Assembly (NCBI GenBank): GCA_903935205.1
Contig: CAIZQU010000109.1
Location: 40,210-104,209, forward strand
Source: an uncultured cyanobacterium
Lineage (GTDB): Bacteria; Cyanobacteriota; Cyanobacteriia; PCC-6307; Cyanobiaceae
Reading direction: 5' to 3'
DNA: 64,000 bases
Shown here piece by piece: positions 33,695 through 63,838 of this stretch; positions within the stretch are counted from its first letter, which is position 1, and each line of letters begins with the position of its first letter. Made by a program: the position numbers and the translations under genes. The notes beneath the pieces were generated by a model. That model ran no database searches and had not been told where the DNA came from. It was given only the letters and a program-made list of their open reading frames with translations.

Positions 33695-33830
33695 CTGTTC
33701 TGTTCCTTTCTGTTCTGTTCCTTTCTGCCCTTATCTGACCTGACCCGATCTGCCCTTATCTGACCTGACCTGACCTGACCTGACCCGATCTGAGCCGACC
33801 TGAGCTGCCCTGAGCTGCCCTGATGCGCTG
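33695..33830. repeat. Tandem array of 15-bp and 5-bp units
   Basis: Two exact 15-mers CTGTTCTGTTCCTTT (33695-33709, 33710-33724) are followed by about twenty pentamers from 33731, mostly TGACC with CGATC, TGCCC, TTATC and TGAGC variants. The pentamer frame is kept throughout. The array ends 40 nt before composite repeat copy C. Confidence 0.9.
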
Positions 33831-33869
33831 GCCAGATCAGCGGATCCGATCATCAGAGCGGCTGGGTAC

Positions 33870-34129
33870 CTCTGGCGCATCGAGCGACACAGCGGGCCCC
33901 GAACAGACACAGATCCGATCCGGCGCCTGGCGCGGCACCATCCTGGGACCCGGGAGATCGACAAGACCGCAGAGCTTTCGCCGTGGGATCCAGTGCTGTG
34001 AAACCCTTCTGCCCATGGGTGTGGGGCCAACATCTCGGAGCGGATGAGAATCCCTTCAGACTCTGATTCGCTCCATGGCGAAATCACAGCATCGATCTGG
34101 GGGCAATACGGCTACGCCCCACAGGCTCC
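33870..34129 (+). repeat. Composite dispersed repeat, copy C
   Basis: Module 1 (33870-33983, 114 nt) aligns without gaps to copies A and B. Shared blocks include CGAACA, CCGATC and (A/G)(T/G)CCTG(A/G)GAC. Module 2 (34007-34129, 123 nt) aligns without gaps to copy A, sharing TTCTGCCCAT, GCGGATG and TACGGCTAC. The modules are separated by 23 nt with no tandem array inside; the array lies upstream instead. Confidence 0.8.
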
Positions 34130-34148
34130 CCGATCAGCCAGCCGGGCT

Positions 34149-35021
34149 TCAGCAGATCACACCGAGGGCCGCGAGCCGGCGGCGCAGGGCGGTCCAGTCG
34201 AAGCTGCGGGGATCGGAGCGCTCCAGACCGAGATCCACATGACGGTGGGTGGTGATCGCCTCCGGCGCGATCGGATATCGGCCCATCCAGTCCGCCAGCA
34301 CCACCGCCAGGGCGTCGTACTGGGCGCTGCTGTAACCGCTGTGGGAGGGGCCGTCATCTTCGCCATCGAGGGGGGTTTCGAGGCTGATGTGCAGGGCGAA
34401 ATTGTTGACCGAGCCACTCACCTTGGGGCTGGTCATCGCCCATTGACCCTGGAAGGCGGAGTAACCGGCACCGAAGGCGCGCTTCTCGGGCGGCACGGTG
34501 TCGACCACCTGGCCATCACCACCGATCAGGGTGTGATAACTGACCTGCTGGGCATCGTCAGGATGGTGCGTGCGGAAGGTGTTGATCGCCGATTCCATCC
34601 CATAGACGGTTTCATGGAGCACCACCAGCCGAGGCCGGGGATCGAGGCGGTTGCCGCCGATGTCCTGGCGAAGGCGCTCGCCGTAGTTGCTCGGATCGAT
34701 CACCACCCGCTGGCGCCGTTGGGGCAGGCGGGCGAGCAGCCCCTGCAGGCGGGCTTCCTCCTCGGCATCGCGGGTCGGGCAGACCTGCCGCAGGGGTGAC
34801 GTCCAGGTGGCCTGGCCGGGGGGCGCGCTGATCCGGCGACGGGGCTGGGCCGGACTGGGTCGGGGACCCTCCGCCAGCAGATCGATCAGGGAGGGGCGAT
34901 CGCCGGGTTGGTCCGCCAACCGCTGCAGCAGGCCGCGGGACAGCCAGAACAGGCCCCCGAGGCTGAGGGCGGTGGCACCGGCGAGGGCGACCAGCAGGGG
35001 GCGGCGGCTCTGGGCGTTCAC
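34149..35021 (-). CDS. N-acetylmuramoyl-L-alanine amidase (Amidase_2 type)
   Basis: A 290-residue protein with an N-terminal membrane anchor (LLVALAGATALSLGGLFWL) and a C-terminal amidase_2/PGRP-like domain that cuts the bond between muramic acid and the stem peptide. Zinc-site candidates are the histidines in LVVLHETVYGMES and ITTHRHVDLG; VSYHTLIGGDGQVVDTVPPEKRAFGAG and NFALHISLET are typical of the family. The start is GTG at 35021, overlapping the M61 gene's stop (GTGA), so translation is coupled. Confidence 0.9.
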   Translation of the reverse strand: MNAQSRRPLLVALAGATALSLGGLFWLSRGLLQRLADQPGDRPSLIDLLAEGPRPSPAQPRRRISAPPGQATWTSPLRQVCPTRDAEEEARLQGLLARLPQRRQRVVIDPSNYGERLRQDIGGNRLDPRPRLVVLHETVYGMESAINTFRTHHPDDAQQVSYHTLIGGDGQVVDTVPPEKRAFGAGYSAFQGQWAMTSPKVSGSVNNFALHISLETPLDGEDDGPSHSGYSSAQYDALAVVLADWMGRYPIAPEAITTHRHVDLGLERSDPRSFDWTALRRRLAALGVIC

Positions 35022-37362: not shown

Positions 37363-37650
37363 GGAGCCAGTTGCGGGTAGCCGTAATGGCTCCAGATCCA
37401 TGGGGAGATCTCGCTGTGGAACGGAACGGGGTCTCCCATGGATCCCATCCGCAACGCGATGCTGGCGCGGTGCCAATGGGCAGAATGAAGGCGCCACAAC
37501 AGATCGCGAGATGAAGGTCCAGAGATGAAGGTGCTGAGATGAAGGTCCTGAGATGTTGTTGATGCCCTGCGTCTCAGGATGTGGCTGTGATGTGGGCCCG
37601 ATCGGCTCTGTCTCTGTTCGGGATCTGGTCTGCTGACCCCTGCGCAACAG
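37363..37650 (-). repeat. Composite dispersed repeat, copy A
   Basis: Read on the minus strand, module 1 runs 37650 to 37537 and module 2 runs 37485 to 37363. Module 1 aligns gap-free with copies B and C; module 2 aligns gap-free with copy C. The 51 nt between them, together with the end of module 1, carry a 14-bp tandem array. Shared short blocks include CCTGAGAC, GGCATCAACAAC and ACCTTCATC (with copy B). Confidence 0.82.
37508..37555. repeat. 14-bp tandem array inside copy A
   Basis: Units GAGATGAAGGTCCA, GAGATGAAGGTGCT and GAGATGAAGGTCCT follow each other (37508-37549), then a partial unit GAGATG. The array overlaps the module 1 end of copy A, at the place where copy B has its 15-bp array. 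Confidence 0.9.
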
Positions 37651-37742
37651 GCTTCTGGCGATGACCGCCACCCGATCCGCCGAGCGCCTTTTTCCCTCGT
37701 TCCAACCCCCGATTGCCGCGCGCTTTCGCCCCTGCCGCACCG

Positions 37743-38498
37743 ATGAACCCGCCCCTTGCTCCGTCCCCGGATCCTTTCCCTGGCGACCGTCGTGCGTTGG
37801 CGGCCCCGACCGCTTCGGGCCGCTCGGCTGAGGGTTCAGCGCCCCTGCCGGCCTGCCCAGCGGATCCCGAGGGCGCTGCCGCCGCCGCCCTGCTCTGGCC
37901 CCAGGCCTGGCCCGAGGCTCTGCCGCCGCTGCGGCTGGGGGTGATGGCCTCCGGTGCCGGCAGCAACTTCGAGGCGCTGGTGCGTGCTGGCCGCCAGGGC
38001 CCCCTGAATGCCGAGGTGGTGCAGCTGGTGGTCAACAATCCCGGCTGCGGTGCCAGCCGGCGGGCCGCAGCGCTCGCGGTGCCCTGCGCCCTGCTCGATC
38101 ACAGGGAGCTGCGGGACCGGCGCCAGCTCGACCAGCGGATCGCAGCCCTGTTTCAGGAGCAGGGGGTCGATCTGGTGGTGATGGCCGGCTGGATGCGGAT
38201 CGTCACCCCGGAGTTGATCGGCGCCTATCCGCAGCGGCTGCTCAACATCCACCCCTCCCTGCTGCCGAGCTTCCGGGGCGTGGATGCGGTGGGCCAGGCC
38301 CTGGCCGCCGGTGTGCGGCTCAGCGGCTGCACCGCTCACCTGGTGGTCGAGGAGGTGGATGCGGGGCCGATCCTGGCCCAGGCGGCGGTGCCGGTGCTGG
38401 CCGGTGATGACCACGCCAGCCTCAGCGCCCGCATCCAGCGGCAGGAGCACCGGCTGTTGCCCCGGGCCGTGGCCCTGGCGGCGGCCCGGTTGCGGTAG
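37743..38498 (+). CDS. purN: Phosphoribosylglycinamide formyltransferase
   Basis: A 251-residue GAR transformylase for the third step of purine synthesis, using 10-formyl-THF. The core starts at about residue 58 (LRLGVMASGAGSNFEALV). The catalytic segment is LLNIHPSLLPSFRGVDAV with Asn and His, followed by GCTAHLVVEEVDAGPILAQAAV. An N-terminal Ala/Pro-rich extension of about 55 residues precedes the core. The ATG at 37743 is used, but an internal start closer to the core, such as the ATG in GVMASG, cannot be excluded. The upstream region holds repeat copy A. Confidence 0.93.
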   Translation: MNPPLAPSPDPFPGDRRALAAPTASGRSAEGSAPLPACPADPEGAAAAALLWPQAWPEALPPLRLGVMASGAGSNFEALVRAGRQGPLNAEVVQLVVNNPGCGASRRAAALAVPCALLDHRELRDRRQLDQRIAALFQEQGVDLVVMAGWMRIVTPELIGAYPQRLLNIHPSLLPSFRGVDAVGQALAAGVRLSGCTAHLVVEEVDAGPILAQAAVPVLAGDDHASLSARIQRQEHRLLPRAVALAAARLR

Positions 38499-62337: not shown

Positions 62338-62786
62338 GCACCCCGCTGCCCCACCCTGCCCAGAGCCCCGACAGCGCCCCGGTTCAGGCCGGGGACCATG
62401 GCGACCGGATCCTCGTGCGCGATCTGCGGGTCTGGGCCCATGTGGGCGTGCTGGAGGAGGAGCGGCGCCTGGGGCAGTGGTTTGCGATCTCCTTCGCGAT
62501 CGCGGCCGATCTCTCTGCCACCGCCCGCAGCGACGACCTGGAGGGCGGCTACGACTACGGGCTGGCGATCACCGCCCTGCAACGGCTGGCGCGGGGCCTG
62601 CGCTGCCGCACCCTGGAGCACACCGCCGATCGGCTGCTGGATGCCCTGGAGGAGCTCCATGGGCCGGTGGGCCTGGCCTTGGAGATCCGCAAGTGCCGGG
62701 TGCCGGTGGCGGGCTTCGGCGGCAGCGTCGCCGTGCGGCGCCAGCGACGCTGGCCGGCGGGGGGCGATCCCCTGGGCGGCGTCTGA
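62334..62786 (+). CDS. folB: Dihydroneopterin aldolase
   Basis: A 150-residue FolB, which splits dihydroneopterin in folate synthesis. After a 24-residue leader, the domain starts [25 protein letters not shown]. The active-site glutamate lies in GVLEEE and the lysine in [42 protein letters not shown] is typical. The GTG at 62334 overlaps the proA stop by four bases. Confidence 0.93.
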
Positions 62787-62997
62787 TCGCCGTTGGCGCG
62801 CCCCATCCGTTCCTGGCGCCCGTCCCGCCGCCAGCGCTCCAGGCCTGCACCCTCGGCGGTTTTCCGCCGCAGCCGGATGGTTGGTCAGAGGGGGGGCTGA
62901 TCATGATGGGCTGGCGGGCTGGGAGGCCTTTCCAGGGCCCGGTCCGAACGGTCCAGGCTGCCGTCCACACCGTCCCTACGCCCAGATTCCCCTTCGG

Positions 62998-63615
62998 ATG
63001 AGTCTCACCCCAGCGGCCGAGCAGGCTTCCCCACCCCTGGTGCTGGTGCATGGCCTGTTCGATACCCCAAGGCTGTTCGACAGCCTGCGCCACCGCCTGG
63101 GGGGTCGCCGCTCCCCCCTGCTGGTGCCCCATCTGCCCCACGCCCTGGGTTCGGTGCCGCTGGAGGAGCTGGCGACGGAGCTGGGTCGCCAGATCGAGAC
63201 CGCCTTCGGTCCAGACCAGCCCCTGGACCTGATGGGGTTCTCGATGGGTGGGGTGATCGGCCGCACCTGGATCCAGCTGGGGGGCGGCCATCGCCGCACC
63301 CGCCGCTTCACCAGCGTGGCCAGTCCCCAGCGGGGCACCCTGGCGGCGCTGCCCTGGCCCAGCTGGCCCCTGGCTGGCATCGCTGACATGAAGCCCGGCA
63401 GCCCCTTGCTGCGGCGCCTCGCCGCCGCCGGTCCCCTGCTGGAGGAAGTCGAGTGCTGCAGCTTTTACTGCCCCACCGATCTCACCGTCTTTCCCGGCTG
63501 GGAGGCGGTGCTGCCGGTGGGGGCACGGCAGCCGCTGCCGGTGTTCTGGCACAACCGCTTGATGGCGGAGCCCGCCTCGCTGGATCCGGTGGTGGCGGAA
63601 CTGCTGCGGCCCTGA
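62998..63615 (+). CDS. Lipase/esterase-like alpha/beta hydrolase
   Basis: A 205-residue alpha/beta hydrolase. The oxyanion loop is LVLVHGLFDTP, the nucleophile elbow MGFSMGGVIGRTWIQL (GxSxG), and a likely acid/His pair in YCPTDLTVFPGW and FWHNRLM. The pattern fits lipases and triacylglycerol-esterase-like proteins of cyanobacteria. The substrate is unknown, and no signal peptide is seen. The ATG at 62998 begins the domain; the longer ORF is a shadow of folB. Repeat copy B begins 5 nt after its stop. Confidence 0.88.
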   Translation: MSLTPAAEQASPPLVLVHGLFDTPRLFDSLRHRLGGRRSPLLVPHLPHALGSVPLEELATELGRQIETAFGPDQPLDLMGFSMGGVIGRTWIQLGGGHRRTRRFTSVASPQRGTLAALPWPSWPLAGIADMKPGSPLLRRLAAAGPLLEEVECCSFYCPTDLTVFPGWEAVLPVGARQPLPVFWHNRLMAEPASLDPVVAELLRP

Positions 63616-63620
63616 TGAGC

Positions 63621-63734
63621 CTGTGGCCCATCGCTCGACAGACCCGGCCTCGAACAAAGGCCGACCCGATCGCGCGGCGAGGGCGACCGCAGCCTGAGAC
63701 AAAGGGCATCAACAACGCCTCAGCACCTTCATCG
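63621..63734 (+). repeat. Composite dispersed repeat, copy B, module 1
   Basis: These 114 nt align without gaps to module 1 of copies A and C. Shared blocks with copy A include CCTGAGAC, GGCATCAACAAC and CCTTCATC. It starts 5 nt after the hydrolase stop. The 15-bp tandem array follows directly. I could not find module 2 in the remaining 160 nt. Confidence 0.8.
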
Positions 63735-63838
63735 CGCGATCGAGAATCACACGATCGAGTATCGCGAGATTGAGTATCTCCAGATTCAATGTCACCAGAT
63801 CTAATATCACCAGATCCAGTATCGCCAGATCCAATGGA
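63734..63838. repeat. Seven 15-bp tandem units
   Basis: Seven units of exactly 15 bp run from 63734 to 63838. Examples are GCGAGATTGAGTATC, ACCAGATCTAATATC and ACCAGATCCAGTATC. The central GAT and the closing ATC/GTC are the most constant positions. Units drift gradually along the array. There are no spacers between units. Confidence 0.9.

What the first reader, a model, noticed from the sequence alone, without database searches (positions are those of the whole stretch)
33870..34129. Family of composite intergenic repeats (copies A, B, C)
Three intergenic stretches (33870-34129 plus; 37363-37650 minus; 63621-63838 plus) share a 114-nt module that aligns with no gaps among all three. Copies A and C also share a 123-nt second module, again without gaps. 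Codon-position counts between A and B (6, 7, 9 differences at positions 1, 2, 3) and in module 2 between A and C (12, 7, 9) show no coding bias, despite protein-like strings. The module order and lack of indels suggest selection on a structure, an RNA or a mobile unit.
Basis: seen in the sequence. Interest (0 to 1): 0.78.

Follow-up and report, generated by a model that had tools for sequence, protein, structure and literature searches.

The report
Mobile DNA miniature at stop codons
The three matching intergenic stretches are old copies of a short jumping DNA element with about seventy copies in this cyanobacterium; it was probably moved by the enzyme of a larger jumping element and often sits exactly on gene stop codons without harming them, so it is a new member of a well-known kind.

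Summary
The three stretches are copies of one ~267-nt element, not a composite of independent modules. A (33865-34129 +) and B (37363-37655 -) are nearly complete; C (63617-63748 +) keeps the 5' half, followed by a 15-nt tandem array. The second module is shared by A and B, not A and C. A sequence-only model finds 74 matches in this 3.8-Mb picocyanobacterial genome (71 copies after joining split hits). Fresh copies end in perfect 19-nt terminal inverted repeats. The same ends bound an IS1182-family insertion sequence in related Synechococcus/Cyanobium genomes, where all 18 exact ends found abut CTAG. So this is a MITE, most likely mobilised by an IS1182-type transposase; only degraded IS1182 genes remain in this assembly. 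Tests for a selected structure fail beyond the terminal repeats. An unexpected pattern: CTAG is about 22-fold depleted here, and 19 of 71 copies sit exactly on a neighbouring gene's stop codon (TAG in 17 of 21 such ends versus 3 of 38 others). CTAG targeting explains this, because the insertion keeps the stop. New member of a known kind; the stop-codon landing is its most interesting property. Target-site duplication was not shown statistically in this genome.

The parts
33865..34129 (+). Copy A: nearly full-length old MITE copy (model positions 2-266 of 267), about 20 bp beyond the stop codon of the amidase gene (34149-35021 -)
   Evidence: cmsearch with model R1, 160.9 bits; gene by Pfam Amidase_2; stop offset -21
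37363..37655 (-). Copy B: nearly full-length MITE copy (model positions 2-266) with an internal 14-nt tandem array, between two divergent genes, just upstream of a formyltransferase gene (37713-38498 +)
   Evidence: cmsearch with model R1, 198 bits; array 37508-37555; Pfam Formyl_trans_N
63617..63748 (+). Copy C: 5' half of the MITE only (model positions 3-134); begins at the TGA stop of the upstream ORF (62398-63615 +)
   Evidence: cmsearch with model R1, 84 bits; stop codon at the boundary
63738..63835 (+). 15-nt tandem array that follows copy C where the 3' half of the element would be
   Evidence: Tandem Repeats Finder, 15-nt and 30-nt periods; no second-module similarity to A above its null
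37508..37555 (.). 14-nt tandem array inside copy B; other copies in the genome carry 14-nt expansions too
   Evidence: alignment of young copies
37363..37380 (.). Decayed terminal inverted repeat at the 3' end of copy B
   Evidence: TIR scan, 3 mismatches of 19
34112..34130 (.). Decayed terminal inverted repeat at the 3' end of copy A
   Evidence: TIR scan, 3 mismatches of 19

Best explanation
A, B and C are decayed copies of a ~267-nt non-autonomous transposable element (a MITE). Shown: about 71 copies in one genome; a young subfamily at 92-97% identity with perfect or near-perfect 19-nt terminal inverted repeats; the same terminal repeat on a 1.84-kb IS1182-family IS with an unbroken transposase frame in a congener; CTAG outside every exact end in related cyanobacteria; own-genome ends in CTAG or CTAG-like CCAG/CTGG; 19 copies exactly at gene stop codons. 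Inferred: an IS1182-type transposase recognised the shared ends and moved the element into CTAG by cut-and-paste with a 4-bp duplication. CTAG is very rare in this genome and stop codons TAG preceded by C are one of its reservoirs, so many insertions fall on stops. The duplication would rebuild the stop and leave the protein unchanged. Elsewhere the CTAG decays, mostly to CCAG or CTGG, while a stop-codon CTAG is held by selection. Old copies drift, expand internal 14-15-nt tandem repeats and lose ends, as A, B and C show.
For: 74 matches, 71 copies after joining. Perfect or near-perfect TIRs. 11 young copies 92-97% identical pairwise. TIR pattern with up to 3 mismatches: 55 forward and 49 reverse in the own genome, against 2 and 2 for the reversed control. 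Transposase between the same ends: NCBIfam IS1182, 331.9 bits, cut-off 270. CTAG outside 18 of 18 exact TIR ends in loci classed as cyanobacterial against 1 of 33 in the other loci. Stop codon at -1 or -2 in 21 of 59 ends with coding sequence pointing at the element; TAG 17 of 21 versus 3 of 38, Fisher p 1.8e-8. CTAG 8 times in 64 kb against 174 expected. In relative G024 an IS1182 remnant starts at the TAG stop of the same gene that carries a MITE here.
Against: Identical 4-mers at both ends occur in 8 of 41 copies, no more than in shuffled pairs (mean 5.5, p 0.14). Six of 17 young copies have CCAG on the left and CTAG on the right, which plain duplication plus slow decay does not explain. 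No intact IS1182 transposase was found in the own assembly: one hit over the cut-off, a truncated gene. The MITE body shares nothing with the IS beyond ~22 terminal nt. No clean empty site was recovered.
Confidence: 0.9

Rival explanations
1. A dispersed structured RNA or DNA element kept by selection on its fold.
For: Whole-element fold of one copy has z -5.2 and -4.9 on the two strands. Internal hairpins show 71.1% paired cells against 70.1% in shuffles, reached by 10 of 500, and a covariation score reached by 8 of 500.
Against: Without the TIRs z is -1.27, -1.15 and -0.26. RNAalifold gives no consensus structure. Changes on both sides are at or below the slid controls. No Rfam match at gathering threshold. 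The TIRs themselves account for the strong fold.
Confidence: 0.05
2. A MITE that has been taken over by the host as a 3'-end element, for example as a terminator or mRNA stabiliser behind stop codons.
For: 19 of 71 copies sit exactly at a gene stop codon; a TIR stem could form in the transcript.
Against: The position is expected from CTAG targeting alone: at least 3 of the 8 CTAG in the window appear to be stop codons. No conserved structure in the body. TIR pairing is no better kept than in shuffles. Expression was not measured.
Confidence: 0.1
3. A decayed protein-coding repeat or gene family.
For: Long open frames cross copies A and B.
Against: Each of six frames is open throughout in only 1-7 of 40 copies; differences between A and B are even over the registers, 31, 31, 31; copy lengths vary by non-multiples of three.
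Confidence: 0.01

Closest known systems
IS1182-associated MITEs of Methanosarcina acetivorans (partner ISMac2), PMC3852290 (passages read)
   Same: Short non-autonomous elements paired with an IS1182-family IS; a 4-bp direct repeat listed for one of the two.
   Different: 160-169 nt, 7-14 copies, an archaeon. Sequences were not compared here.
MITEPsy1 of Pseudomonas syringae, PMC3189936 (passages read)
   Same: Inserts at CTAG or YTAA, duplicated on insertion; 18-nt terminal repeats.
   Different: 100 nt, assigned with doubt to IS5 (ISPsy2-like ends), 6 copies; experimentally trapped.
BrickBuilt of Porphyromonas gingivalis, PMC4596501 (abstract read)
   Same: A MITE holding a tandem minisatellite, many intergenic copies in one species.
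   Different: 23-nt units as the core of the element; here 14-15-nt arrays occur in some copies only.
QMITE2 of Coxiella and ISSoc2-derived MITEs of thermophilic Synechococcus, named in review PMC10969869 (passages and section 3.3 read)
   Same: Mostly intergenic; QMITE2 mainly in 3' untranslated regions; ISSoc2 MITEs in a cyanobacterium.
   Different: Other IS partners; primary papers not read (the ISSoc2 paper is not held).

Membership tests
MITE (miniature inverted-repeat transposable element) | Terminal inverted repeats | tested here: met
   19-nt perfect TIRs at both ends in several copies, for example C122, C99, C27, C15:41113, C88
MITE (miniature inverted-repeat transposable element) | Short, without a transposase gene | tested here: met
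   267 nt; no frame kept open across copies
MITE (miniature inverted-repeat transposable element) | Many dispersed copies, some recent | tested here: met
   74 matches, 71 copies after joining; young copies 92-97% identical with different flanks
MITE (miniature inverted-repeat transposable element) | Target-site duplication | tested here: inconclusive
   CTAG-like 4-mers at both ends, but identical pairs 8 of 41, p 0.14; CTAG on both sides of the related IS and of MITEs in other genomes
MITE (miniature inverted-repeat transposable element) | Ends shared with an autonomous partner | tested here: met
   First ~22 nt match the IS in L107; IS ends in other cyanobacteria carry the same 17-mer
IS1182-associated MITE | Partner transposase belongs to the IS1182 family | tested here: met
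   NF033551, 331.9 bits, cut-off 270
IS1182-associated MITE | Intact partner in the same genome | tested here: not met
   Only truncated or fragmentary IS1182 genes in the assembly; 169 contigs, so a missing copy is possible. A partner may be lost after activity, so this is not a strict requirement.
IS1182-associated MITE | Transposition by that enzyme | not testable with these tools
   Needs a transposition assay
Structured RNA family | Conserved structure with covariation | tested here: not met

The most novel reading that the evidence does not exclude
The CTAG-targeting element uses stop codons as a main safe harbour: in a genome purged of CTAG, C-TAG stops remain as landing sites, the duplication rebuilds the stop, and convergent genes sharing one CTAG can be parted without damage. 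The mobile family would thereby systematically add new 3' ends to housekeeping genes.
Probability: 0.4. Interest if true: 0.5.

Novelty: new member of a known kind. Interest (0 to 1): 0.36.

Why it matters
It turns a puzzling repeat into an ordinary, testable object and names its likely engine. The stop-codon landing is a clean natural example of how a mobile element can spread through a compact bacterial genome without breaking genes, and of how CTAG depletion shapes where it can land. Eight searches of the held papers showed no report of this family or of MITEs that rebuild stop codons; only listings and a few passages were read.

Tried and rejected
RNA or structural element: rejected, with the weak contrary signal noted. 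Coding repeat: rejected. Derivation of the body from the IS: no similarity beyond ~22 nt of the ends. Vsr repair as the cause of CTAG loss: no Vsr match in the genome, so the cause is open. Presence elsewhere: no DNA match in 41 other congeners or in 39 relatives; in a family sample of 300, three other genomes gave only weak matches of 29-37 nt, 39-40 bits, with just two candidates scored per genome; none in plasmids; a 21-nt core is absent from viral contigs. Empty site at C132: 41 of 42 genomes matched the joined flanks, but no match listed from another genome was a clean empty site spanning the junction (the list was cut). No transfer RNA in the window. The first alignment of copies had minus-strand copies turned the wrong way; this was corrected and nothing is cited.

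Full report
What was claimed and what is there. The similarity is far above chance. A model of 40 copies places them at 33865-34129 (+), 37363-37655 (-) and 63617-63748 (+). A and B span the whole element; C keeps the first half. The second module links A and B, not A and C.

Family in the genome. BLASTN with A, B and C gave 19, 51 and 42 matches, merged into 55 places. Model R1 gave 74 matches, which I joined to 71 copies; 3,270 first-look candidates were found but 150 scored, so this may be a lower bound. Eleven young copies are 92-97% identical pairwise; all 40 aligned copies average 75%. Of 45 near-full-length copies 22 are exactly 267 nt and the range is 265-302. Expansions of a 14-nt unit account for several of the longer ones; B has such an array and C a 15-nt array. 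Some copies lie at contig ends, as repeats do in short-read assemblies.

Ends and engine. Young copies begin AGGAGCCTGTTGCGCGTAG and end with its reverse complement. A scan of genome contigs for the 17-mer GAGCCTGTTGCGCGTAG returned 51 stretches; about 30 would be expected by chance at that size (my estimate from collection length). Eighteen lie in records that I classed as picocyanobacterial or close to it by title, and all 18 have CTAG outside the end, against 1 of 33 of the rest (the rest includes one Leptolyngbyaceae record). L107 holds a complete IS from 847 to 2687 with a 522-residue IS1182-family transposase. The element here shares only the outer ~22 nt with it. In the own genome the transposase search gives a truncated copy on C156, next to a CTAG and a related end, and fragments. 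The IS1182 query matched 31 of 42 congeneric genomes, whereas the MITE matched 1 of 42, the own genome.

Target and stop codons. In the window CTAG occurs 8 times against 174 expected from base composition. Of 123 element ends judged (18 truncated ends and one at a contig end were left out), 28 have CTAG, 31 CCAG and 12 CTGG. I scored codon usage, trained on 25 long ORFs of the window, to find genes pointing at each end. In 59 ends a gene points at the element, and in 21 of these (19 copies) its stop codon lies at offset -1 or -2, that is, on the CTAG; no other single offset has more than 2. One further copy (C117) has its stop at -4 and is not counted. One of the 21 rests on a weakly scored frame (C78:29238 left end, score 15.2). 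The stop is TAG in 17 of 21 such ends and 3 of 38 others. None of the 21 stop-side ends reads CCAG, while 31 of 102 others do. From their sequence the genes look like housekeeping ones, such as release factor 1, RecR, MurF and YebC; these names are my reading of the translations and come from no database search.

The clearest case. On contig C132 a copy lies between convergent genes for a pseudouridine synthase and a methyltransferase (names again from reading the translation), both ending in TAG at the element's two ends, as if they once shared one palindromic CTAG. Homologues of the methyltransferase in 14 congeneric loci align to residue 297-299 of 299, so that gene is not truncated; two further loci gave only N-terminal fragments. 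The synthase tail is less conserved, with alignments ending at 275-287 of 299. In relative G024 the same synthase ends in a TAG within CTAG and is followed at once by an IS1182 remnant (remnant identified by eye from its translated N-terminus). No clean empty site was found.

Structure. One young copy folds strongly as a whole (z -5.2 and -4.9), but this is due to its terminal repeats: bodies of three copies give z -1.27, -1.15 and -0.26. RNAalifold finds no consensus on 40 copies. For the TIR stem pairing is 84.5% against 83.9% in shuffles (67 of 500 reach it). For two internal hairpins it is 71.1% against 70.1% (10 of 500), but changes on both sides are no more common than in slid controls. 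This does not support selection on a fold.

What stays open. The 4-bp duplication is not statistically shown here (8 of 41 identical pairs, p 0.14). The left CCAG and right CTAG of six young copies is unexplained. Vsr repair, recalled as a CTAG-removing process in E. coli, has no homologue found here. Whether copies at stop codons alter transcript ends is untested.

Comparison with the literature. MITEs paired with IS1182 elements are reported in Methanosarcina (PMC3852290, passages), CTAG-duplicating MITEs in Pseudomonas (PMC3189936, passages), an IS1182 element with a 4-bp repeat in Paracoccus (ISPse1, PMC3281130, passages), and a MITE with a minisatellite in Porphyromonas (PMC4596501, abstract). 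Each single trait is therefore known; the combination and the stop-codon pattern were not found in searches.

Noticed in passing
window 33695-33823: Tandem arrays of 5-, 15- and 25-nt units (CTGAC-like) just upstream of copy A, not part of the element.
   Followed up: no
L093:5736-5999, L123:2640-2903, L107:5453-5716: A different ~264-nt MITE family with the same terminal repeats and CTAG flanks in Cyanobium sp. Cruz CV13-4-11 and a Lac Pavin cyanobacterial MAG (81% identical between L093 and L107).
   Followed up: partly
L197:987-1241 (own genome, contig C24): A ~255-nt stretch bounded by related terminal repeats whose body does not match the family here, possibly a second MITE type.
   Followed up: partly
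L094:2065-2635: In Synechococcus sp. RedBA-s, a ~570-nt stretch bounded by the same terminal repeats abuts a further IS1182-like left end across one CTAG.
   Followed up: no
own genome C138:3394-3894 (L020): Two copies joined head to tail through a shared ACAGGCC motif, with loss of terminal-repeat sequence, suggesting recombination between copies.
   Followed up: no
window, whole: CTAG is about 22-fold depleted (8 against 174 expected); the cause is unknown and no Vsr homologue was found.
   Followed up: partly
own genome ends listed: Six of 17 young copies have CCAG on the left and CTAG on the right, an asymmetry that simple duplication does not explain.
   Followed up: partly
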